64,000 nucleotides of DNA. Origin: Verrucomicrobiota bacterium (GTDB lineage Bacteria; Verrucomicrobiota; Verrucomicrobiia; Opitutales; UBA953). The stretch spans positions 1 to 64,000 of the forward strand of contig SUVQ01000002.1 of NCBI GenBank assembly GCA_015061905.1, given 5' to 3'. Below the pieces are notes generated by a model. It had not been told where the DNA came from. It ran no database searches and saw only the letters and a list, made by a program, of their open reading frames with translations. Below, in pieces: positions 16,453 to 43,327 of the stretch. Each line of letters begins with the position of its first letter. Position 1 is the stretch's first letter. The position numbers and the translations under genes are program-made.

Positions 16453-16518
16453 GTTTAAACTCTTCGGCGTTGTCATGCCGAAGAGTTTAAACAAAAAGAG
16501 CGTCCGAGGTTCGGACGC
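16453..16518. other. Two perfect hairpins in the head-tail gene gap
   Basis: A 16-bp perfect inverted repeat (16453-16468 with 16477-16492, loop 8 nt) is followed by an 8-bp one (GCGTCCGA 16500-16507, TCGGACGC 16511-16518, loop 3 nt). Neither is followed by a T run on the leftward strand, so attenuation or RNA processing is as likely as termination. A heptad repeat follows at about 16546-16574. Confidence 0.7.
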
Positions 16519-16555
16519 CCTGCACGGAATGACGTTTTTTTTGAAAGATTAGAGC

Positions 16556-17164
16556 TTAATGCTTAGAGCTTAAAGGAACGAAGCCGCGGAAGCGGATTTT
16601 TTGGTTCGCAACATCATCGGAGCTGTAAACGAAAAACTCTCCGGCGGAGGTTTTGCGGGAAGCGGAAAAGCCCCACTCGCCGAGAGCCTTGACATTTGTC
16701 GGCTCTTCCAAGACAAAGCGGCAAATCTTTTCTTCGTCCGGCTTCAAGCCGGAAAAATCAAAACGGTCCCCGGGATCAAAGAAAACAAGCACCTTATCCG
16801 CCATCACGTGGAGGGCAACGCTCGGTGCGTTTTGCCAGTCGTGTTCAAGCTTCTGCACGGGATCAACCACTACGACCGCGTTCCCGCAGACGGCAATGCG
16901 TTCTTCGCCGAAACGTTTGCGTAGCTGTGCGAGCAATTCCTCGCGGATTCTTGCATCTTTCGGAAGCGTCGAAGCCAAGCCCGTGTTTGAGTAGCTTTTC
17001 TTCTTTCCTTCGGCGACCGTCAGGTTGTAGCGAGGGCGCGGATACTGCGAGTTGATATAGCGGCAAAGCTCCACAACCTCTTCGGACGTTCCCGCCTTAA
17101 GCGTTATCGCGTCGTCCATGAGATTGGCGTAAATCCTATCTTTCGTCTCTTGCGTGAGCTCCAT
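16556..17164 (-). CDS. Hypothetical phage head-completion protein, 202 aa
   Basis: A soluble alpha/beta protein with an N-terminal helix (MELTQETKDRIYANLMDDAI), then NAVVVVDPVQKLEHDWQNAP. It ends with FRGFVPLSSKH. The start overlaps the MuF stop region by one base. I do not recognise it. Position between MuF and the gpG-like gene suggests a connector or minor head role. Confidence 0.65.
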   Translation of the reverse strand: MELTQETKDRIYANLMDDAITLKAGTSEEVVELCRYINSQYPRPRYNLTVAEGKKKSYSNTGLASTLPKDARIREELLAQLRKRFGEERIAVCGNAVVVVDPVQKLEHDWQNAPSVALHVMADKVLVFFDPGDRFDFSGLKPDEEKICRFVLEEPTNVKALGEWGFSASRKTSAGEFFVYSSDDVANQKIRFRGFVPLSSKH

Positions 17165-18504: not shown

Positions 18505-18517
18505 GCCTCTTTAAGCT

Positions 18518-20080
18518 TTAAGCCTTAATCTTTAAACTTTCCTCCAGGGCTTGCGCGACGTCGTCGCGAGAAAGCACTTTTTCGGCAAGCGCGGGGAAAC
18601 GCCGCTTAAACTCCTTGAGAAGCTTCGTAAATTCCTCTTCGCTTTCAGCGGATTCAAGCCGCGCGAGAAACTCTTCCACCCGGGAATACTGCGCACGCTC
18701 GCTTTCGCGCAAATTCAGCCTTCGGGCGGCTTGCGCGAGCGAATCCGATACTTCATTCGCAAACGGAAGCCCAGCCCCTGAAAACGGCATTTCCGCGCTT
18801 TCCGTGCGCTTTAAAATTTTGTCTCCCTCGGCGATTGCCGGAATGCCGAATTTAGCCCGGACATAATTTTCCGGGAGTTCGAGCCCCATCTCGTAGGCGG
18901 CTTTGAGCGTATTGATTTCGGCGGTACGCTCCATTTCGTCGTTGCGCACAAATCGGAAATACGCGAGAGGGCGCACATCCTCGCCGAAAACGAGCTTTAA
19001 AAACGTGTTTCCGATCTGCGCATTAAGCACGCCCTCGACAAACTGCATGTCGGACTCCGCGATCGCGCCCATTTCTTCGCTTTGCGGGTTTGAGCCGGCG
19101 GAATCTCCCGCCTGCGAAAGCGTAGAGAGGTCGCCGCCGCGCCAAAGTGAAATCAGCGTTCGGTCGAGATACTCGATCATCTCTTTGTGCGGCGATCCGG
19201 TCTGCGCAAGCCCGTTTTGGACAACGACGTCGACATCTTTCCCGATAACGCCGCCGAAACGATTTTTCGCATTTCGGACAAGGTTTTCCAACGCTTTCCA
19301 CTCCGCCGAGCCGTAGCTTGCCGAGGTTTTTCCGAAAACAAACGGCACGGCAAAGGTTTCGACCGTCACCGCCCAATCTTCGAGCGGTGTCATTTTTAGC
19401 ATAAACAGCAGGAGCGTGGGGAGCGCGAGCGGCTCGCCCGGAGCGCAGGCAACAACCCACCCGCGCGGATCGAGCTTGTCCCCGCGCAGCATGGACGAGT
19501 TCGACGTGATGATGCGCAGTTCCCGCGTCGTCGCCTCAAAAAATCGCAACGGGCAGTGTATCGTTTTTGCGTGATACGTCCGCTCGCCTTTCGCCGTTGT
19601 CGCCGGAGTCCACTCAATTTCGGCGGCGGCATACTTAAACGCCTGCGCCTGCACGAGCTGGAAAATGAGCGTCTCAATGCCGCAACGCATGTCCGTTGCC
19701 GTTGCGGACGAGGCGACGAGCGTTTTGTAAAAATCATCGAGAAAATCCGCCTGCCGCTTGGCTTCCTCGGAATCGTCGACCGTGGCAATCTCCCAGTCCT
19801 TTCCGGACACGGCACGCCAACGCTTCGGAGCGACCGTGCCGACGATGCCGTCGTAAGCGATCACGCGCTCCATCGTGGGGGCGCACTGCGGGAAATAGCC
19901 CAGCTCGAAATTACGCAACATTGCGCCGTAATCGCGCGGCGTGAGGCTTGCCCAGCGCGATGAATACATCATCCGCGATTGGCGTTCCGCCATTTCGGCG
20001 GCATTTTGCGCCGGGCGATCCGTGATCTCTACGGGCATCGTCCCCGGGTTCGGCTTGGTTGTCGGAATGATTGCGTCCAT
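18518..20080 (-). CDS. Portal protein (Mu gp29/DUF935 family)
   Basis: 520 residues. The portal core is recognisable by SSSRWASLTPRDYGAML-like N-terminal text (YSSRWASLTPRDYGAMLRNF), the KPNPGTMPVEI linker and the long wing/stem region SLWRGGDLSTLSQAGDSAG. That last stretch matches DUF935 portals of Mu-like phages. The C-terminal 80 residues are charged and helical (RESERAQYSRVEEFLARLES). The dodecameric portal forms the DNA gate of the procapsid. It follows the terminase gene as in Mu. Confidence 0.88.
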   Translation of the reverse strand: MDAIIPTTKPNPGTMPVEITDRPAQNAAEMAERQSRMMYSSRWASLTPRDYGAMLRNFELGYFPQCAPTMERVIAYDGIVGTVAPKRWRAVSGKDWEIATVDDSEEAKRQADFLDDFYKTLVASSATATDMRCGIETLIFQLVQAQAFKYAAAEIEWTPATTAKGERTYHAKTIHCPLRFFEATTRELRIITSNSSMLRGDKLDPRGWVVACAPGEPLALPTLLLFMLKMTPLEDWAVTVETFAVPFVFGKTSASYGSAEWKALENLVRNAKNRFGGVIGKDVDVVVQNGLAQTGSPHKEMIEYLDRTLISLWRGGDLSTLSQAGDSAGSNPQSEEMGAIAESDMQFVEGVLNAQIGNTFLKLVFGEDVRPLAYFRFVRNDEMERTAEINTLKAAYEMGLELPENYVRAKFGIPAIAEGDKILKRTESAEMPFSGAGLPFANEVSDSLAQAARRLNLRESERAQYSRVEEFLARLESAESEEEFTKLLKEFKRRFPALAEKVLSRDDVAQALEESLKIKA

Positions 20081-21491: not shown

Positions 21492-22007
21492 TCACATTCC
21501 GAGCATACGGTTGATCTCTTCCCGGATCTTTGCAGGATCGCGCTTATCCTTGGGCTCTTCGCCCATTCCGGCGCGTCGCTCGATTACGGCGACACGCCGC
21601 TCGGACAATTTGATTTTGCGCCCCTCGTTAACGAGGCGCACCAATGCTGCCACGACTTCGTGGTCGGCATTTTCTGCGAGCACATCGAGCGCGCGTTCCT
21701 TGGCGAGGTTCTCTATTGCTTCTTCGACCGTCCCCGCGTCGCCTCCCGCCTTGTAAGCCTCAATTACGCGGCGAGCCACGTCGAGATTCGTTTGCGCACG
21801 GCGCACGATGGTTTCCGCGCGCAGCCAATTCCCAACGGCGGTCGCGGAAATTTTAAGTCCGTCTTTTTCGCGGATGATTTGCGCGAGCTTTTCCGTCGGC
21901 GTCTTTTCGGCAAGCGCAAAAATCGCGTCCCGTCGCGCCGGAGTAAGCAAATTCATTTTGCAATCCGCGCGCATCTTGCGCGCTCCGATACCCTTTCTCG
22001 CCGTCAT
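21492..22007 (-). CDS. Terminase small subunit (Mu gp27/DUF3486-like)
   Basis: 171 residues. A basic N-terminus is followed by an HTH (TPTEKLAQIIREKDGLKISA) and then a helical region (NLDVARRVIEAYKAGGD). The C-terminus ends with RDPAKIREEINRMLGM. This resembles the DUF3486 small terminase family, which recognises the packaging site. Order next to gp28-like and gp29-like genes is the Mu order. Confidence 0.8.
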   Translation of the reverse strand: MTARKGIGARKMRADCKMNLLTPARRDAIFALAEKTPTEKLAQIIREKDGLKISATAVGNWLRAETIVRRAQTNLDVARRVIEAYKAGGDAGTVEEAIENLAKERALDVLAENADHEVVAALVRLVNEGRKIKLSERRVAVIERRAGMGEEPKDKRDPAKIREEINRMLGM

Positions 22008-22011
22008 AAAA

Positions 22012-22266
22012 TCAAAAACCCTCCTCCTCTAAAAAATCGATTCCGTCCGGAGCGACGCGTAAGCGCATCGTTGCCGACACCTTCGACTTCCGCGCCAGCA
22101 AAAAACCGCGATCAAGCAAATACGCGACGCTTTCATCGATTCTTTTTTCCGATATGCGCTTGTCTTCCGTGCGTATCTGCGCGCGGATACATGCCTCCGT
22201 CGTTCCCGCCGCACCGTTGACGCGAACGATGCGCAAAATCAAAATCCTAAGTTCGTCCGTGCTCAT
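22012..22266 (-). CDS. Small winged-helix-like phage protein, 84 aa
   Basis: An N-terminal helix (MSTDELRILILRIVRVNG) is followed by an HTH-like segment (ACIRAQIRTEDKRISEKRID) and a beta wing (KVSATMRLRVAPDGI). This suggests a small winged-helix DNA-binding protein. Mu-like phages keep small genes of this kind before the terminase. It overlaps the upstream gene by 4 bp. Function not known. Confidence 0.65.
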   Translation of the reverse strand: MSTDELRILILRIVRVNGAAGTTEACIRAQIRTEDKRISEKRIDESVAYLLDRGFLLARKSKVSATMRLRVAPDGIDFLEEEGF

Positions 22267-22652
22267 TTCCGCAAGTGTGATTCGATGCTTTCTAAGCGGT
22301 TTTCAAAGCCGCGGAACACGTCCGCCGTCGACTTCCTCATGACTTCCGCGGCGTTGAGAAAATTCTTGTTTTGTTGACGCACAGCCTCCTCCAATCGCGA
22401 AACGGCCTCACGCGTGTCCGCCATATTTGCGGACAGGCGCTCCCGGAACTCGTCGCTGCGCTCCTGCATCGCCGTCATGCGAGACTCAAACTCTTTGCGC
22501 GTGACCGCTTTTTTGTCGCCGTCGGCATCGGGTTTGTTGTTTTTCGGCGGAAAAAATTCGCGCCAGATGCGCACTGCGGTGTGCACGACGACAAGCATCG
22601 CCGCGATACTGCCGAAAACGGCAAAAAACTGTTCCGGTGTGGGCGTGGGCAT
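22263..22652 (-). CDS. DUF2730-like membrane-anchored coiled-coil protein (Mu gp25-like)
   Basis: 129 residues: one N-terminal membrane helix (EQFFAVFGSIAAMLVVVHTA), a basic-acidic linker, and a coiled coil to the end (RLEEAVRQQNKNFLN, ENRLESIESHLRK). Mu gp25/DUF2730 proteins share this layout and lie upstream of the terminase genes. The role is unknown. Confidence 0.65.
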   Translation of the reverse strand: MPTPTPEQFFAVFGSIAAMLVVVHTAVRIWREFFPPKNNKPDADGDKKAVTRKEFESRMTAMQERSDEFRERLSANMADTREAVSRLEEAVRQQNKNFLNAAEVMRKSTADVFRGFENRLESIESHLRK

Positions 22653-22701
22653 TTTTTTTTGAAAAAAGAAGAAAGATTAAAGCTTAAAGATTAAAGACGG
22701 G

Positions 22702-23160
22702 TTAAAAACGCCAGTTGCGCCGGTCCATGCGTGTGCAGCCCCCGATGGCGACACTCGCTCCGTTGTTAGCGGCATTGCTTACCGCCCCCGTTCCCGGATT
22801 TTCAACCGGGATCGCGCAGGTGCGCAACTTATCCAGCGTATCCCGCGCCTTAATCCATGCGTTGTAACGCGGATCTTTGCTTGCCTCGATCGGCATGCCG
22901 ACACGCGTGCCGACGTGGTAAGCCACCATCGAGATCGCGTCGTTAAGCAGGCTGTGCGGGATGCGTGACGGATTCGGATCGAGCGTATTTTTTTCACAGG
23001 CGGCAATTGCCGCGCGCATCTCCGCCAAAACGGCGTCGATGATCTCCTGCAGCAGATCCTGCCCGGGCTCGTGCGTGTCTTTGTCAAAGGTCAAAATCGC
23101 CTGATATTCCTTCGGCGACATGCGCGGTATCACCCGCGCCTTTGTCAATTCGATCCACAT
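22702..23160 (-). CDS. Mu gp36-like (DUF1320-type) protein
   Basis: 152 residues with the mostly helical layout of DUF1320: LLQEIIDAVLAEMRAAIAAC, then LLNDAISMVAYHVGTRVGMP, and a conserved Tyr/Asn stretch KDPRYNAWIKARDTLDKL. In Mu-like phages gp36 follows the capsid genes and helps build the head-tail connector. It is flanked on both sides by heptad-repeat gaps. Confidence 0.7.
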   Translation of the reverse strand: MWIELTKARVIPRMSPKEYQAILTFDKDTHEPGQDLLQEIIDAVLAEMRAAIAACEKNTLDPNPSRIPHSLLNDAISMVAYHVGTRVGMPIEASKDPRYNAWIKARDTLDKLRTCAIPVENPGTGAVSNAANNGASVAIGGCTRMDRRNWRF

Positions 23161-23250
23161 GGTTTTTTTTGAAAGTTGAGGGCTTAATGCTTAAAGCTTA
23201 AAGAAGACGAAAGGATGCCTCTTTAAGCTTTAAGCTCTAAGCTCTAAGCT

Positions 23251-24207
23251 TTATTCGGTCACGGTGATGACGTTTGCGCCCGCGGTCGAGGTAACCTGCA
23301 AGCCCTGCTTGGTGTAAACCGTGATGAGCGTCTTGCGTCCCTGCGCGTGCGGAGATTCGTAAACCGTAAACCCTGCGCCCGAGCGGAACACCTTCATGTT
23401 CGACGCGTCCTCCGTGGACGTTCCCGAAGAATAGGCGAGGTAAATCTTGTCGTTGATAATAAGCGGGAACGAGCCGTCCGCCGCCGCTTGGCGACCGTTC
23501 GGGACGAGCACGTCCACTCCGTAGCGGCTGCCGAACTCCGACGGCGATTTCGGAGCGGCAAGAGCGCCCGCCGTGAGCTTGGATTCCACGCCCGACATAT
23601 ACAGATTCCACGCCTTCGCGCCGATGAGCGCCGTGTTGGGCGTCACGACCTCCGAGGCGAGGATGTCGCGGACCACCGCGCCCAAATCCTGAGTCCCGAC
23701 GGAGACCTCCGTGTCCGTAGCAAACAAATCAAACAGTTCGAGTGTGCGAATAAACGTGGCGCGCTCGATCACGTTAATCAGTTTGCGGACGAGCGCCTCT
23801 TTGTAATTGGTGATGCGGTTAAGATGGTCGTTTTCGACTTCGATGCAGAGCCCGATATCATCGATCAGCCCCGCGCGCTTTTCCGCCTTGTCGGAAACAG
23901 CCTTATAGTCTCCCCCGACGGCACGCTTGAGCTCGTCGTAACCCACCGTCGTCATCGACTGCGACAGCGGCCAATAACGATACTCAAACGCCCCGCTGTT
24001 TTCGACAATCGGCGCATCCGGAGCGATCATGCGGCGAGCCTGAGCGATGTTGCTCTCGCCGCTGACGCGCACGGCAAACTCCGAGAGAAATGTCGACTCG
24101 GTCCCGAGCTGGGTAATGTTCGCAAAAGCAATCTGCCCAGGACGCGCACTTTTAGTGTCTGCGGCGACCCCGCCGAAAGAATTGATAATGTCCTTAATGT
24201 TACGCAT
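23251..24207 (-). CDS. Major capsid protein
   Basis: 318 residues. Position after a decoration protein and a protease/scaffold, plus HK97-like features (an N-terminal arm, the FEYRYWPLSQSMTTVGYDEL segment, and the P-domain end KVFRSGAGFTVYESPHAQGR), mark it as the Mu T-type major head subunit. It should form the procapsid with the I-type scaffold. The stop lies beside an AGCTTAA-type heptad repeat. Confidence 0.85.
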   Translation of the reverse strand: MRNIKDIINSFGGVAADTKSARPGQIAFANITQLGTESTFLSEFAVRVSGESNIAQARRMIAPDAPIVENSGAFEYRYWPLSQSMTTVGYDELKRAVGGDYKAVSDKAEKRAGLIDDIGLCIEVENDHLNRITNYKEALVRKLINVIERATFIRTLELFDLFATDTEVSVGTQDLGAVVRDILASEVVTPNTALIGAKAWNLYMSGVESKLTAGALAAPKSPSEFGSRYGVDVLVPNGRQAAADGSFPLIINDKIYLAYSSGTSTEDASNMKVFRSGAGFTVYESPHAQGRKTLITVYTKQGLQVTSTAGANVITVTE

Positions 24208-24230
24208 TTTCTTTTTTGTCCTTTAAAAAA

Positions 24231-24623
24231 TTAAGCCTTGGGCACATAAACGAGGAACACCTCGACCGCGCCGGGATCCGCGAGCGTTACCGTCTTCGCA
24301 ACCGTGCCGACCTGCCGCGTTCCCGCAGTCGCCGTTACGGCACCGTTTTCCGCCGCGTAAACGGGCATTCCCGCCGTATACGTCCCCGCGACTGCGTTAA
24401 CAATCACGCTTCCGGGCTGATTGCCGGCAAGAGCCGCAGAGACCAGTTTGCCGCGCTCGACCGGGTCCACCAGCGTTACCAGGAGTGCCGCCGCATCGTC
24501 CGCCGCAGACGTCCACGGCACCAACTTGCCGTCGTCATCAAGCACGCACAGCGTGCCCTGTTTCGTCGTCTCATCCGCCACTTCCGCAGAGATGAGCCCC
24601 GAGATATGCGTCGCCTGATCCAT
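24231..24623 (-). CDS. Head decoration protein (DUF2190-like)
   Basis: 130 residues, beta-rich and alanine/valine-rich. It includes VDPVERGKLVSAALAGNQPG and GTYTAGMPVYAAENGAVTAT, typical of the small capsid-stabilising proteins that precede the major capsid gene. The start overlaps the stop of the 59-aa gene by one base. Confidence 0.75.
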   Translation of the reverse strand: MDQATHISGLISAEVADETTKQGTLCVLDDDGKLVPWTSAADDAAALLVTLVDPVERGKLVSAALAGNQPGSVIVNAVAGTYTAGMPVYAAENGAVTATAGTRQVGTVAKTVTLADPGAVEVFLVYVPKA

Positions 24624-24802
24624 TAGTCGCGGGCTCCTTTCTCCGCCTTTTTGGCGTCACGTGCGGCGCGAGCCGCGAATTTACGTTTGGCGATCGCACG
24701 CGCTTCCGCTGCGGGGATCCCCGCATTGGTCAGCTTGTCGGCGTGAGCCTGTTCCTCCGCCGCCGTGTCCGCCGTCTTTCGTTCGTCGTTGTTTTTAGCC
24801 AT
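24623..24802 (-). CDS. Small basic/acidic helical protein, 59 aa
   Basis: The ORF MAKNNDERKTADTAAEEQAH... ends KKAEKGARD and lies between protease and decoration genes. It overlaps the decoration start as TAATG. The sequence is all charged residues and Ala, so probably one long helix or disordered. Likely a minor head or scaffold helper; no family recognised. Confidence 0.65.
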   Translation of the reverse strand: MAKNNDERKTADTAAEEQAHADKLTNAGIPAAEARAIAKRKFAARAARDAKKAEKGARD

Positions 24803-24822
24803 CGTAGTTAACTTTTAATTAC

Positions 24823-25956
24823 CTAAATTTTGTTTGCCGCGGCGAAGAGCTTTGCCCCGTCGTCGGTCGATTTAACGCGGCGCATTGCCTCGTCGGTATC
24901 GATGCTTTCGCCGAGTGCCGCCGCTTTTTTGATTTCCGCGTTGACGGCGTCAAAAAATTTCTTCGTTGCGTCCTTGCGGTCCGCGAATTCCTGTTCGCGG
25001 TTTGCCGCGTCGATTTCCGCCGCGCTCTTTGCCTTTCCGGGCGCAGGGAGCGCGTTCTTCGGGAGCGCGTCCATAACCGCCGCCGTGTTGACAAAGTCCG
25101 CCTTCAAGAGCGCCTCGTAGCTCGCGCGCTGAGCGACCGTGATTTGCCCGTTCGCCGTCGCGACATCGAGTTTTTGCGCGATCGCAAAATCCACCGCAGC
25201 CTGCAACGCCGCGCTGTTTGCTTTCGGCTCCGGCTTTTGGACCTTGTCGTCGTCCTTGTCGTCGGATTTGTCATCGTCCTTGTCGTCGTCCGGCTCCGGC
25301 TTTTGCGGAGGTTCCGCCTTGGATTTAAGCGACGTTGCCGCCGTGATGATTGCCTCGGGGTCGTTTGCCTGTTCCGACGAAATCCCGAGAGCTTCCGCCA
25401 GGCGTTTGAGTTGTTCTTCAGTCATGATGCTTGTATCCAAATTTTCATTGATGGTGTCCGCGTTCGGCAGATTTCCCTTTTTGACAAAGCCGAGGGAGAT
25501 TAGCCGGAACGGCGCGAAGACGTCGCCGCCCTGAGGCTCGCAGAGCCATCTCGGCGAGATCTCAAGGCGGCCGAGGTCGTTTTTCAAAAGTTCAAGGGCG
25601 GGAAATTTGCGAATCGTCGCCCAAAGCCCGTCTGCTCGCGCGTCCAGCTTTTCGACGCGTGCGTAAACTTCCGTATCCTGCGGCTCCGTTCCCGCGTTCG
25701 CGTGGTCCGGGTGCCCGTTGTAGCAGGGCAGAGACGCCTTTGCGAAAGGCAGTTTTTCCAGCAGGCGGCGCACGCTCCCGTTAAATGCGTCCGCCATTTT
25801 TTTGGCAGACTCAAATGTAAAGCGCTGGGTGATACGTTTGCCGTTTCCGTCCACCTGCGGAGCGTCGCAATACGGGGCAATACGCTGTTCAATCAGTTCT
25901 TCCGACGCATTCGCCGCGTCGAAAATTTCCGCAGCACCGATGGTCAAAATCTTCAT
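24823..25956 (-). CDS. Mu I-like capsid maturation protease fused to scaffold
   Basis: The start at 25956 (MKILTIGAAEIFD) has AAGGAG upstream and overlaps the previous stop as ATGA. Residues about 1-150 resemble the Mu I protease (SLPCYNGHPDHANAG... with His-rich catalytic strand, LEISPRWLCEPQGG). A very acidic linker (DDDKDDDKSDDKDDDK) leads into a helical scaffold region to the end. The order protease-scaffold then capsid is the Mu arrangement, in which the C-terminal half acts as scaffold. Confidence 0.85.
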   Translation of the reverse strand: MKILTIGAAEIFDAANASEELIEQRIAPYCDAPQVDGNGKRITQRFTFESAKKMADAFNGSVRRLLEKLPFAKASLPCYNGHPDHANAGTEPQDTEVYARVEKLDARADGLWATIRKFPALELLKNDLGRLEISPRWLCEPQGGDVFAPFRLISLGFVKKGNLPNADTINENLDTSIMTEEQLKRLAEALGISSEQANDPEAIITAATSLKSKAEPPQKPEPDDDKDDDKSDDKDDDKVQKPEPKANSAALQAAVDFAIAQKLDVATANGQITVAQRASYEALLKADFVNTAAVMDALPKNALPAPGKAKSAAEIDAANREQEFADRKDATKKFFDAVNAEIKKAAALGESIDTDEAMRRVKSTDDGAKLFAAANKI

Positions 25957-26441
25957 TGGTTTTGCGCTCCTTCCGGTGCTTCGGTTTTTTCCGGTGTATC
26001 CTGTGCGCAATTACACGCCTCCGGCTCCGTTTTCTTTTTCAAAATTTTCCCGGCAGTCGCCGCGAGCGCGGGAACGATAATCTTTTTTGCCGCCGCCCCC
26101 GTGAGCTTTGCCGCCGCCCCCGTGAGCTTTGCCGCCTTTTTGCCGCCCAAAATAATCAGCGCTCCGCTGCCCGCCACCGCAATCAGATTGAGCGGGAACG
26201 GCAAAAACTCGACGCTTTCGGCAATCGTTTGACCGAGTGCGATCGTCTCCTGCGCCTTGGCTTTCTCGACCTCGATTTGCTCGACAGTCATGCTTTCGAG
26301 CGGCACGCCCGACAGCATATTGCAGCCGCTCAACGCCGCGCACACCAGCAGAGACGATCCGAAAAGCATCGCAACGAGCACGCCTCGTGTCGCTCCCGCA
26401 ATAAATTCCGCACTAACAAGACCTTTTTTTCTTTTTTCCAT
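25953..26441 (-). CDS. Phage lipoprotein-like membrane protein with TGAAAK repeats
   Basis: 162 residues from the ATG at 26441. A hydrophobic helix ends in the lipobox-like LSGCN. A helical region follows, then a second hydrophobic segment (PLNLIAVAGSGALIILGG) and the tandem repeat KLTGAAAKLTGAAAK. It is the first gene of the leftward operon. It could be a spanin, holin helper or superinfection-exclusion lipoprotein; nothing decides between these. No other lysis gene is recognisable nearby. Confidence 0.6.
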   Translation of the reverse strand: MEKRKKGLVSAEFIAGATRGVLVAMLFGSSLLVCAALSGCNMLSGVPLESMTVEQIEVEKAKAQETIALGQTIAESVEFLPFPLNLIAVAGSGALIILGGKKAAKLTGAAAKLTGAAAKKIIVPALAATAGKILKKKTEPEACNCAQDTPEKTEAPEGAQNQ

Positions 26442-26640
26442 AAAAAAAATTAAATCCCGGGACGCGCCGTCGGGAGAGACATGAAAACTCCCGAGGGACA
26501 CGCTACGCCGCCGGGCCGACGACTTAATAAAACAATCACCCTCAAGTCGCCGGAGCTGTTGCCTCTCCCGGCGACGCAAAAAATAATACCCGGTTGTGCG
26601 CAAAAAAATCCGCGCGGTTTGCACGGAATGACGAAAAAAA

Positions 26641-26671
26641 ATAGCTTATGGCTTAAAGCTTAGAGCTTAGA
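26641..26671. repeat. Heptad repeat (GCTTAAA/GCTTAGA family)
   Basis: About four consecutive 7-bp units with the core GCTTA. The same family occurs in the phage gaps at about 16546-16574, 18512-18540, 22670-22697, 23180-23204 and 23221-23251, and in host DNA at 56977-57019. Confidence 0.65.
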
Positions 26672-26711
26672 GCACAGGTCGCGGAAAAAATGATTTTTTT
26701 GCAAAAATGTA

Positions 26712-26772
26712 TTGACAAACGCAAAAATGCAGGCAAAATAAACGCCATAATCACAAACGTGGTTATGGCGTT
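26712..26772 (+). promoter_or_regulatory. Promoter and 14-bp leader hairpin before the 36-aa gene
   Basis: A perfect -35 TTGACA (26712-26717) is followed, after an AT-rich spacer with a poor -10, by a near-perfect stem-loop. Arms 26741-26754 and 26759-26772 pair over 14 bp, with one G-U and an AAAC loop. The stem may be an operator, or a leader structure that controls access to the downstream ribosome-binding site. Confidence 0.6.
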
Positions 26773-26796
26773 CTTTCGTAGGAAGGAGGTGATTGC

Positions 26797-26907
26797 ATGC
26801 CGCAAAACACCGAGAAGCCTTCGGAGAAGATCAAGCGGGCACTTGAGATTCTTCGGCTGGCACTCGAGATCGCGATTTTAATCGCGAGGCTCGCGAGCCG
26901 GCTCTAA
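26797..26907 (+). CDS. 36-aa amphipathic peptide with a full-length Shine-Dalgarno
   Basis: ATG to TAA encodes MPQNTEKPSEKIKRALEI followed by LRLALEIAILIARLASRL, a cationic-hydrophobic helix. AAGGAGGTGAT, an 11-nt perfect complement of the 16S rRNA tail, lies 5 nt before the ATG. Genes around it have weak or no such site. The hairpin leader, strong site and small membrane-prone product resemble holin-like type I toxins of other phyla, but I cannot assign a family. A regulatory leader peptide is an alternative. Confidence 0.6.
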   Translation: MPQNTEKPSEKIKRALEILRLALEIAILIARLASRL

Positions 26908-26916
26908 GGCTTCACC

Positions 26917-26938
26917 GCTCGCCGAAAGGCGGGCGGGC
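26917..26938 (+). other. GAAA-tetraloop hairpin after the 36-aa gene
   Basis: CCGCTCGCC (26917-26925) and GGCGGGCGG (26930-26938) form a 9-bp stem with one G-U and a GAAA loop. No T run follows at once; one occurs from 26962. It may be a weak terminator or stabilising 3' hairpin. Confidence 0.5.
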
Positions 26939-26994
26939 TTCCGATGCCCAAGAACGTCAATCTTTTTTTTCAAAAAAGTCAACACGAAACCATC

Positions 26995-27513
26995 ATGAAA
27001 AACGAATATTTTGACAATCTCGACGAATCCGCCCGCGAAGAGCTCGCAAAACGGCTCGAAGCCGCTAAGGACTGGCGAGGCATTCCCGCCGCCTTTTGGC
27101 GAGAGTTGCTGAAAAACCTCATCGAGTCGGACTCCGTCACGCGCCTCGACTCGCTCGCCGGACTCGAACTCCTCGCCCGCGACGAGGAAAATGCCGAAGC
27201 CCTAAATGAGGGCGAGTTTTGGATTTGCGCGTGGACACACGGTCCGCGCGACGAAGATTTAAACATCCACGGCACCATCGACGAGACCGCCGCTAAATTC
27301 GGCTTAGCCGTCTGCGACTGTTGCCGCGACGGGGAAGCCCGCACATGGCTCATCGGCGGGATTAACGACGGCGAGGCGGCGAAGCGATACGCCGTGATCG
27401 ACCGCGAAGACGGTGCCGTTTACGGCTGCTTTGACGCCCTCGACGAGGCGCGGAAAGCGCGCATCGGCGAGGACATCATCTTTGACCGCGAAACAGGAAA
27501 GGAGCTTAACTAA
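26995..27513 (+). CDS. Hypothetical phage protein, 172 aa
   Basis: The start at 26995 (MKNEYFDNLDESAREEL) is preferred over 26944 because the extra residues are low-complexity. The protein is acidic, with a helical N-terminal half and an alpha/beta second half (FWICAWTHGP, LNIHGTIDETAAKFGLAVCD). No family recognised. It is the first full-length gene of the rightward block and overlaps the following RHH gene (TAATG). Confidence 0.65.
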   Translation: MKNEYFDNLDESAREELAKRLEAAKDWRGIPAAFWRELLKNLIESDSVTRLDSLAGLELLARDEENAEALNEGEFWICAWTHGPRDEDLNIHGTIDETAAKFGLAVCDCCRDGEARTWLIGGINDGEAAKRYAVIDREDGAVYGCFDALDEARKARIGEDIIFDRETGKELN

Positions 27514-27719
27514 TGACACCCAAGCCCCGAAACCCCAAAGCGCGCTACGGAAACACGAATGCCGTGAAAATTCCCGGGCAGCGTCGCATACAAAAGCAAT
27601 ACTCGATGTATCGCGAAACCCTCGAGCTCATCGATGAGATCCGCGCGAAAACCGGCGAGACGGCGAGTGCCGTCGTTGCCCGCGCCATTAAAGAGGCGCA
27701 CAAATCAATAAAATATTGA
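27513..27719 (+). CDS. Small ribbon-helix-helix-like regulator, 68 aa
   Basis: A basic N-terminal arm is followed by RIQKQYSMYRETLELIDEIR and TGETASAVVARAIKEAHKSI. This is the strand-helix-turn-helix spacing of RHH repressors (SxVVxxAIxE). It may bind the inverted repeats at 26741-26772 or the promoter that starts at its own stop (27716). DNA-binding role inferred from pattern. Confidence 0.65.
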   Translation: MTPKPRNPKARYGNTNAVKIPGQRRIQKQYSMYRETLELIDEIRAKTGETASAVVARAIKEAHKSIKY

Positions 27720-27745
27720 CGCGGTAGCATTTGCGGCGGCATAAT
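27716..27745 (+). promoter_or_regulatory. Strong sigma-70-type promoter
   Basis: TTGACG (27716-27721) and CATAAT (27740-27745), each 5 of 6 to consensus, 18 bp apart. The -35 overlaps the RHH stop codon. A start would fall near 27752. Confidence 0.65.
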
Positions 27746-27751
27746 CACCGC

Positions 27752-27867
27752 CGTGAATACTACGCGAGCACAGCCGAGATTTTTCCGACGCGAAATGCGT
27801 CGCTCTTCGGCACAACCTCGCATTCAACGCGTTCCCGTTTTGTTCGGTCGGGAACGCGTTTTGTTTT
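27752..27867 (+). ncRNA. Candidate small phage RNA ending in a motif-built terminator
   Basis: The promoter at 27716-27745 is followed within about 120 bp by an intrinsic terminator (arms 27826-27837 and 27849-27860, then TTGTTTT). No convincing ORF lies between them. An internal hairpin (CGACGC 27787-27792 with GCGTCG 27797-27802) is present. The terminator stem is two facing copies of the dispersed octamer. It could also be a leader for the ASCH gene. Confidence 0.5.
27826..27867 (+). terminator. Terminator made of two inverted CGTTCCCG motifs
   Basis: AACGCGTTCCCG (27826-27837) and its exact complement (27849-27860) flank an 11-nt loop, then a T-rich tail. Confidence 0.8.
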
Positions 27868-27881
27868 CGATCAAACCGAAC

Positions 27882-28206
27882 ATGATAACGAAAAATACAG
27901 ACACACCGCGAAGAAAAACCTCTCTTTATCCCGCTTTGCCGCGAGTGGTTCGAAAAATTCGAGAGAGGCGAAAAAACGAAAGAGTATCGCGTTTACGGAC
28001 CTCGATGGAACGAGAAAACGTGCCAAATCGGTCGCCCGGTCGTTCTTTCTATGGGCTACGGGAAAGCTCGTCGGTTGCACGGCAAAATAGCCGGCTTTCG
28101 CGTGATCGAATTTGAGCATCTTCCCGGCGAGGTCGCCGATTTCTTCCACGCGATCGACGTCGACATTTACGCCGAAATCCAAATCGCACTGCGCAGGGAG
28201 AGATAA
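27882..28206 (+). pseudogene. ASCH-domain protein with a +1 frameshift near the start
   Basis: The reading frame ending at 28206 gives LFIPLCREWFEKFERGEKTK, then EYRVYGPRWNEKTCQIGR and GYGKARRLHGKIAGFRVIEF, a typical ASCH fold (RNA-binding or nuclease-related, common in phages). It has no ATG, GTG or TTG before the conserved part. Reading from ATG 27882 and skipping one A in the A5 run at about 27912-27917 yields an uninterrupted protein. Either a real 1-nt insertion, a sequencing error, or slippage explains it. Confidence 0.65.
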
Positions 28207-28227
28207 CAGACACAATCTACGACCTAA

Positions 28228-28260
28228 AACGTCTCGGAGCTATCCGGGGCGTTTTTTTTT
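28228..28260 (+). terminator. Terminator of the rightward phage block
   Basis: An 11-bp stem (28228-28238 with 28243-28253, two G-U pairs, 4-nt loop) is followed by a run of T. Confidence 0.85.
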
Positions 28261-28475
28261 ATTTCTCAAACTCGCGCACCAAAAATTCCCAAACTTCTGC
28301 TCGCGTCGAAGAGATTTCTCAAACTTCCGAGACGCTTATTTCTCAAACTATTGATTTTTCGCTCTTTCCGGGCGCGCTATTTCTCAAACTACTATCCGGC
28401 GCCAAAAATCGCCCGAAATCCGCTTCAACACTAACCCTCCGTCCGTTTCTCAAACCATTTCACAATTTCTCAAAC
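28261..28475 (-). repeat. Right prophage end: inverted copies of the GTTTGAGAAAT repeat
   Basis: ATTTCTCAAAC starts at 28261, 28314, 28338, 28379 and 28465, with GTTTCTCAAAC at 28445 and a degenerate copy near 28284. Orientation is opposite to the left cluster. The outermost copies of both ends share a longer match (GGTTTGAGAAATTG). No gene lies between 28261 and 28504. Confidence 0.75.
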
Positions 28476-43154: not shown

Positions 43155-43327
43155 TTTGCCTTGCCGAAGCTCTCTTTCCGAGAAAATTTTAAAAAATCCG
43201 AACGGCACCGCCCCCATGAGGAAAAATCGCGCATAAGCATAACGTTTTTCTACCTCGGTTGAAGCAGATTCACAAACAGCCGAAACGGCTGTTCTCCCGT
43301 TTTTCTTCTCGGAAACGCAAAAAAAAA

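What the first reader, a model, noticed from the sequence alone, without database searches (positions are those of the whole stretch)
26712..26938. 36-aa amphipathic peptide with hairpin leader and perfect anti-SD match
A perfect TTGACA, a 14-bp stem in the leader, an 11-nt perfect match to the 16S tail and a 36-residue cationic-hydrophobic helix stand out in a genome whose genes show weak ribosome-binding sites. This resembles holin-like type I toxins, and it is too short for most gene callers.
Basis: partly seen in the sequence, partly recalled or inferred. Interest (0 to 1): 0.6.

Follow-up and report, generated by a model that had tools for sequence, protein, structure and literature searches.

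The report
Self-folding mRNA for membrane-helix peptide
In a gut bacterium's prophage, a short RNA that folds its own start site away encodes a 36-residue helical peptide that looks like a growth-stopping membrane toxin; four diverged copies in two related species keep the fold, so it is probably a new family of self-silenced toxin-like genes, though toxicity has not been tested.

Summary
In detail: TTGACA (26712), a 14-bp leader stem (26741-26772), AAGGAGGTGAT (26783) and a 36-aa ORF (26797-26907). It is more than chance. A sister prophage (Opitutales MAG RGIG9148) is about 80% identical up to the promoter, diverges completely across the element, and still has at the same spot a TTGACA promoter, a hairpin of different sequence and a small amphipathic-helix ORF. 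Three further copies lie elsewhere in that genome and in a third species. The copies share a ~215-nt RNA fold: a 5' hairpin at the transcript start, GTTCTTT paired with the 3' end (hiding ribosome site and start), and a hairpin after the stop. All five fold far better than shuffles (z -5 to -9.3), with compensatory changes. No match in Pfam, NCBIfam, PHROGs or Rfam.

Best reading: a new family of type-I-toxin-like genes, a self-sequestered mRNA for a membrane-inserting helix, working like H. pylori aapA or hok. No antisense RNA is shown, so it cannot be filed as type I toxin-antitoxin. The perfect anti-SD is peculiar to the window copy, and 'holin-like' is not supported. Distribution appears narrow (3 of 8 species of one genus). 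Functional claims are inference.

The parts
26712..26717 (+). -35 box TTGACA
   Evidence: at nearly the same distance (28-32 nt) before the hairpin in L037 (TTGACA), L041 (CTGACA), L038 (TTGGCA); degenerate in L040
26734..26739 (+). -10 box CAAAAT (16-nt spacer)
   Evidence: AAAAAT in L037, CAAATT in L038, poor in L041
26741..26772 (+). 5' hairpin at the predicted transcript start, 14 bp (11 bp when the long-range helix forms)
   Evidence: same place with different but self-complementary sequence in all four relatives; 6 of 11 pairs changed on both sides among the four
26770..26785 (+). 5' arm of the long-range helix GTTCTT-T-CGT-A-GGAAG (takes in the 5' part of the SD)
   Evidence: GTTCTTT invariant in all five copies
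26783..26793 (+). AAGGAGGTGAT, 11-nt canonical anti-SD match; mostly paired in the predicted fold
   Evidence: window copy only
26797..26907 (+). 36-aa ORF MPQNTEKPSEKIKRALEILRLALEIAILIARLASRL, amphipathic helix
   Evidence: relatives L009:9787-9888 and in L040, L041, L038
26915..26936 (+). 3' GC-rich hairpin just after the stop codon (GAAA loop)
   Evidence: a GC hairpin at the same place in the other copies
26938..26955 (+). 3' arm of the long-range helix CTTCC...ATG...AAGAAC
   Evidence: AAAGAAC/AAAGGAC in the other copies, whose 13-bp helix is 100% paired with 3 doubly changed pairs
26977..26982 (-). TTGACT on the minus strand, conserved in 4 of 5 copies; possible -35 of an antisense RNA (unproven)
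   Evidence: and the 3' flanks printed
26995..27513 (+). adjacent phage gene of unknown function (172 aa from the homologue's start codon; ORF 26944-27513), 71% identical in the sister prophage; context, not part of the element

Best explanation
A stand-alone gene of about 250 nt. A sigma-70-type promoter makes a ~215-nt RNA that begins with a stable hairpin. GTTCTTT just after the hairpin pairs with the RNA's 3' end, and this helix plus local hairpins lock up the ribosome-binding site and start codon, so the full-length RNA would be translation-inert. Release (for example by 3'-end trimming, or before the 3' end is made) would allow translation of a 33-36-residue cationic amphipathic helix that inserts in the membrane and slows or stops growth. 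Shown by computation: promoter position, hairpins, long-range pairing, compensatory change, amphipathic helix, several copies in differing gene neighbourhoods. Inferred: that the peptide is made, that it is membrane-active or toxic, that the lock is opened by processing, and that an antisense RNA is the antitoxin.
For: The sister prophage is 81% identical up to 26742 and 71% from 26974, but in between only the anatomy is kept. Relatives of the sister's peptide at E 2e-8, 1e-4 and 3e-3 in two other species of the genus, all with the same layout. All five RNAs fold at z -5.0 to -9.3 against 200 dinucleotide shuffles, with about 12 expected long-range pairs and a mostly paired SD/start region in each, including the window copy, which was not used for the consensus; 120 random segments of the window gave mean z -0.4, and the most extreme was this element. 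On the four strict copies 95.8% of cells pair, 16 of 54 pairs changed on both sides, no shuffle reached the covariation score, and sliding the partners destroys it. Amino-acid change is conservative: pN/pS 0.41-0.81 in six pairs, and the ORF frame scores best of six frames in four of six pairs. Copies lie in a prophage and in three chromosomal gaps with different neighbours. Known systems use this logic: aapA3 mRNA of 225 nt with a 5'-3' long-distance interaction hiding the SD, 30-aa toxin, several chromosomal copies (PMC6733600).
Against: No expression, toxicity or antisense data. One copy (L040) is frame-shifted by one A after its ATG and has a weak promoter, so it is decayed, mis-assembled or shows that the peptide is dispensable. 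Starts are mixed (ATG, ATG, GTG, GTG) and only the window has a good SD. pN/pS is below 1 but not low, on 26 codons. The window copy itself is not recovered by the peptide profile and gets only 9.9 bits from the RNA model, so its kinship rests on synteny and anatomy. With a longer 5' end its fold flips to a local SD-hiding hairpin instead of the long-range helix. Narrow spread: 3 of 8 genomes of the genus, none convincing in 384 genomes of the class.
Confidence: 0.6

Rival explanations
1. A structured non-coding RNA (regulatory or scaffold RNA); the ORF is a passenger or vestige of a once-coding RNA.
For: Folding is extreme even inside the ORF (helix 4 lies within codons, 4 of 18 pairs doubly changed); L040 has lost its frame while keeping the fold; start codons and SD are not conserved.
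Against: Four of five copies keep a start codon and open frame; changes are mostly between I, L and V with the pattern of polar residues kept; pN/pS < 1; the window copy combines the frame with an 11-nt SD ending 3 nt before the ATG.
Confidence: 0.17
2. A phage-side membrane peptide with another job (superinfection exclusion, lysis timing or anti-holin), expressed from a prophage accessory locus near the right end of the phage.
For: Two of five copies sit at the same place in a Mu-like prophage, in the window 1.3 kb from its right-end repeat array, next to genes of unknown function: the usual place for accessory genes.
Against: Three copies (two species) are in intergenic regions between chromosomal genes without phage genes around them; no holin or lysis family match.
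Confidence: 0.12
3. A leader/attenuator: the 5' hairpin followed by GTTCTTT acts as an intrinsic terminator or RNA switch controlling downstream genes, and the peptide is a leader peptide.
For: The scan calls the L037 hairpin terminator-like on both strands; a hairpin of the same sequence type is terminator-like elsewhere (L070); a phage gene follows in the same direction in the two prophage copies.
Against: In L041 and L038 the downstream genes point the other way, so there is nothing to attenuate; the RNA closes on itself; no codon run or ligand-sensing logic in the peptide.
Confidence: 0.08

Closest known systems
aapA/IsoA type I toxin-antitoxin (Helicobacter pylori; PMC6733600, PMC8309996)
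   Same: Transcript length (~215 vs 225 nt), about 30-residue amphipathic helix with charged ends, several chromosomal copies, 5'-3' long-distance pairing that hides the SD, local SD-hiding hairpins.
   Different: No sequence relation tested or found; very strong hairpin at the 5' end; antisense RNA not shown; Verrucomicrobiota and a Mu-like prophage.
TisB (tisB/istR-1, E. coli; PMC11449926, PMC8309996)
   Same: 29 aa; polar residues spaced along one narrow stripe (D5, K12, Q19, D22, K26, K29). L038 aligns LQLVLVILQIIEAILKLLR to LKLIVAALQLLDAVLKYLK (TisB letters from memory; no better score in 2000 composition shuffles). tisB mRNA also has an inhibitory 5' structure.
   Different: No family-model match in Pfam at E <= 1 or NCBIfam at E <= 10; TisB is reported only from Enterobacteriaceae; tisB is controlled by a standby site and a trans antisense RNA, not by 5'-3' closure; the window copy's similarity is marginal (p about 0.05).
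hok/sok
   Same: Toxin mRNA silenced by pairing between its two ends, with metastable hairpins (literature as summarised in PMC6733600).
   Different: Hok is a larger peptide with one transmembrane segment and a coupled second frame (own knowledge); no similarity seen.
Holin-like type I toxins (Hol_Tox/Fst-type)
   Same: Small, helical, near phage genes.
   Different: No family match; hydrophobic face interrupted by a stripe of charged residues rather than one hydrophobic span.

Membership tests
Type I toxin-antitoxin system | Small (<60 aa) hydrophobic or amphipathic peptide gene | tested here: met
   33-36 aa, predicted helix
Type I toxin-antitoxin system | Peptide is toxic when expressed | not testable with these tools
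   needs an expression assay
Type I toxin-antitoxin system | Antisense RNA antitoxin | tested here: inconclusive
   Minus-strand TTGACT conserved in 4 of 5, no consistent -10; hairpin is terminator-like on the minus strand in L037. No RNA-seq available
Type I toxin-antitoxin system | Toxin mRNA fold that blocks translation (usual, not universal) | tested here: met
   Prediction only: SD/start mostly paired, long-range helix in all five, compensatory changes
TisB family | Match to a curated family model | tested here: not met
   No TisB match in Pfam (E <= 1) or NCBIfam (E <= 10)
AapA family | Sequence homology to AapA peptides | not tested
   No AapA sequence was compared directly; library scans returned nothing
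Holin-like toxin (Hol_Tox) | Match to a family model | tested here: not met
Any Rfam RNA family | Score above the gathering cut-off | tested here: not met
   none at gathering in the window; only chance-level hits at E 0.6-0.8 on the copies

The most novel reading that the evidence does not exclude
A dispersed, dual-function RNA gene family of Opitutales: codons of the membrane peptide are themselves arms of a conserved RNA fold, so one 215-nt sequence is selected both as peptide and as self-locking RNA, and it is shared between chromosomes and a Mu-like prophage. It may be the first such family known in Verrucomicrobiota.
Probability: 0.3. Interest if true: 0.72.

Novelty: new member of a known kind. 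Interest (0 to 1): 0.55.

Why it matters
Type I toxin genes are too short and too fast-changing for sequence search, and the library searched held no paper describing one from Verrucomicrobiota. Here two sister prophages caught the gene in mid-divergence: letters gone, fold and helix kept. That suggests a way to find more (same position between syntenic genes, 5'-3' closed RNA), and it offers a compact, testable case of whether self-sequestering toxin mRNAs arose repeatedly.

Tried and rejected
Direct searches with the 36-aa peptide: phages, 57 relatives (only itself plus a chance hit); viral contigs refuses so short a query. Scans of viral contigs with the neighbouring gene and the capsid and with a DNA pattern: no relatives. 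Phage and plasmid tblastn with other members: none. Class-wide peptide-profile hits at E 0.008-0.09: the short-frame ones were inspected and lack the anatomy, the rest lie in long ORFs. RNA-model hits in the window at 43323, 32306 and 2419 look like ordinary terminators. Pattern GTTCTTT-N-MAAGRAC over the genus: six further hits fold like random sequence (z -0.8 to +1.6) and were rejected. Operator palindrome reading of the leader repeat: arm spacing differs between copies and the pairing sits consistently at the RNA 5' end, so RNA is preferred. A first background folding scan timed out and was replaced by a smaller one. An empty-site test at rmuC was uninformative: in the window's genome the gene has a different neighbour and no element.

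Full report
What was checked. The leader folds at -25.7 kcal/mol, z -4.8. Strong SDs are rare here: 6 of 30 genes have 5 or more matching nt and the best of them has 7. The assembly holds no 16S gene, so the anti-SD match is to the canonical tail.

Setting. The window is contig C3 of a 2.08-Mb assembly. The nearest relative with the same phage is Opitutales bacterium RGIG9148 from water-deer rectum, of the same genus, so the host is a Verrucomicrobiota of the gut type. The finding lies in a Mu-like prophage: terminase and portal, weak head-protease and Mu gp36 matches, leftward late genes that begin at 26.45 kb. The prophage is bounded by inverted arrays of GTTTGAGAAAT, six copies at 2288-2412 and six at 28261-28475 (14 matches in the window, chance 2.3), which look like transposase-binding ends. 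The transposase found in the sister prophage (phrog_310) has no match in this genome, so this copy looks defective.

The key comparison. The sister prophage (G005:C14, locus L009) is 81% identical in DNA from 21492 to 26742 and 71% from 26974 to 27908. Exactly between these, where the finding sits, sequence similarity vanishes but the layout does not: TTGACA-16-AAAAAT, an 11-bp hairpin of other sequence at the transcript start (z -4.3), and a 33-aa ORF MRKAEKILRLTVEVIQLILAILRIVEIILSLVR. A search with that peptide found further copies in the genus: G005:C28 (83% identity), G005:C14 at 35.8 kb (61%) and G001:C66 (50%). These lie between chromosomal genes in neighbourhoods unlike the prophage one and unlike each other: SUA5-like/rmuC-like, methylase-like/Kelch-like, thrB-like/symporter-like (names by eye from the translations).

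The shared fold. All copies have hairpin - GTTCTTT - ORF - GC hairpin after the stop - a segment complementary to GTTCTTT. Folding each alone gives the same topology in all five, with about 12 expected long-range pairs between the ends and z of -8.0 (window), -7.1, -5.0, -9.3 and -8.2. Random 219-nt segments of the window average z -0.4, sd 1.5; of 120 drawn, the lowest (-7.2) happened to be this very element. On the alignment of the four strict copies the fold pairs 95.8% of cells, has 16 of 54 pairs changed on both sides, and exceeds all 500 shuffles and all slid controls in covariation score; with only four related sequences this is strong but not a formal proof. In the window the long-range helix is GTTCTT/AAGAAC, CGT/ATG and GGAAG/CTTCC, the last taking up part of the SD, while GGTG/CACC and TTGC/GCAA close a hairpin with the start codon in its loop. 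A competing local hairpin TCTTTC/GAAGGA also hides the SD and wins if the RNA is given extra upstream bases that, from the promoter position, should not be transcribed.

Is the ORF coding? Four of five copies keep a start (ATG, ATG, GTG, GTG) and an open frame. In 26 aligned codons, pN/pS is 0.41 to 0.81 over six pairs; changes per codon position are 47, 36, 52; the ORF frame has the best amino-acid scores in four of six pairs. L040 has an extra A that breaks the frame after its ATG, and a weak promoter; it looks decayed or mis-assembled. The evidence favours coding but is moderate, because RNA structure constrains the same bases.

The peptide. Net charge +3, helix 8-35 predicted with pLDDT 89. 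Polar residues run along one stripe at heptad-like spacing in the members, as in TisB, whose D5, K12, Q19, D22, K26 and K29 are described in PMC11449926. Ungapped alignment to TisB beats composition shuffles at p about 0.0005 (L038) to 0.05 (window), with the TisB letters taken from memory; family models do not match. I take this as likeness of mechanism, not membership.

Mechanism. The best parallel is aapA of H. pylori: a 225-nt mRNA whose 5'-3' interaction hides the SD, activated by 3' trimming and repressed by an antisense RNA read from the opposite strand (PMC6733600). The present family has the mRNA half of this. For the antisense half there is only a hint: on the minus strand TTGACT is kept about 235-240 nt downstream of the element start in the window, L037 and L041 and also near there in L040 by eye, but no -10 agrees, and the 5' hairpin reads as a terminator on the minus strand in one copy.

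Spread. The peptide profile finds nothing convincing in 79 genomes of the family or 384 of the class beyond G005 and G001; the RNA model finds the same four copies; a pattern for the long-range helix finds only the five known elements plus chance hits. The window copy is missed by the profile and scores 9.9 bits with the RNA model, so its membership rests on exact synteny with L037 and on anatomy.

Verdict. A real, conserved small gene family with a self-closing RNA and an amphipathic helix; most likely a type-I-toxin-like module of a family not in the libraries searched. Toxicity, translation and antitoxin are untested.

Noticed in passing
2288-2412 and 28261-28475: Inverted arrays of six GTTTGAGAAAT 11-mers each, facing one another at the two ends of the Mu-like prophage; probably transposase-binding ends that delimit a ~26-kb element. 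The sister prophage has the left array too (L030:6040-6143).
   Followed up: partly
27908-28261: The window's prophage lacks the early region (transposase and others) that follows in the sister prophage, and no homologue of that transposase is in the genome: a defective copy that kept both end arrays.
   Followed up: partly
16546-16572, 18512-18524, 22674-22693, 23188-23250, 26643-26676: Tandem heptads of AGCTTAR type in prophage intergenic regions, including just upstream of the TTGACA promoter; 17 near-matches versus 0.5 expected, also at other genome places. Could be a phage regulator's binding sites.
   Followed up: partly
16453-16492: 18-bp hairpin (GGTTTAAACTCTTCGGC...GCCGAAGAGTTTAAAC) at the edge of the stretch of prophage DNA most conserved with the sister prophage (93%, 16454-16542); a segment overlapping it has the second most extreme fold of the window sample.
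   Followed up: no
L040:1487-1590: One chromosomal copy has seven A's where the phage copy has six, breaking the frame: decay, assembly error or possible slippage site.
   Followed up: no
26995-27719: Two small phage genes (172 and 68 aa, the second weakly ribbon-helix-helix-like) follow the element in both prophages; the first has no annotated relative found.
   Followed up: partly
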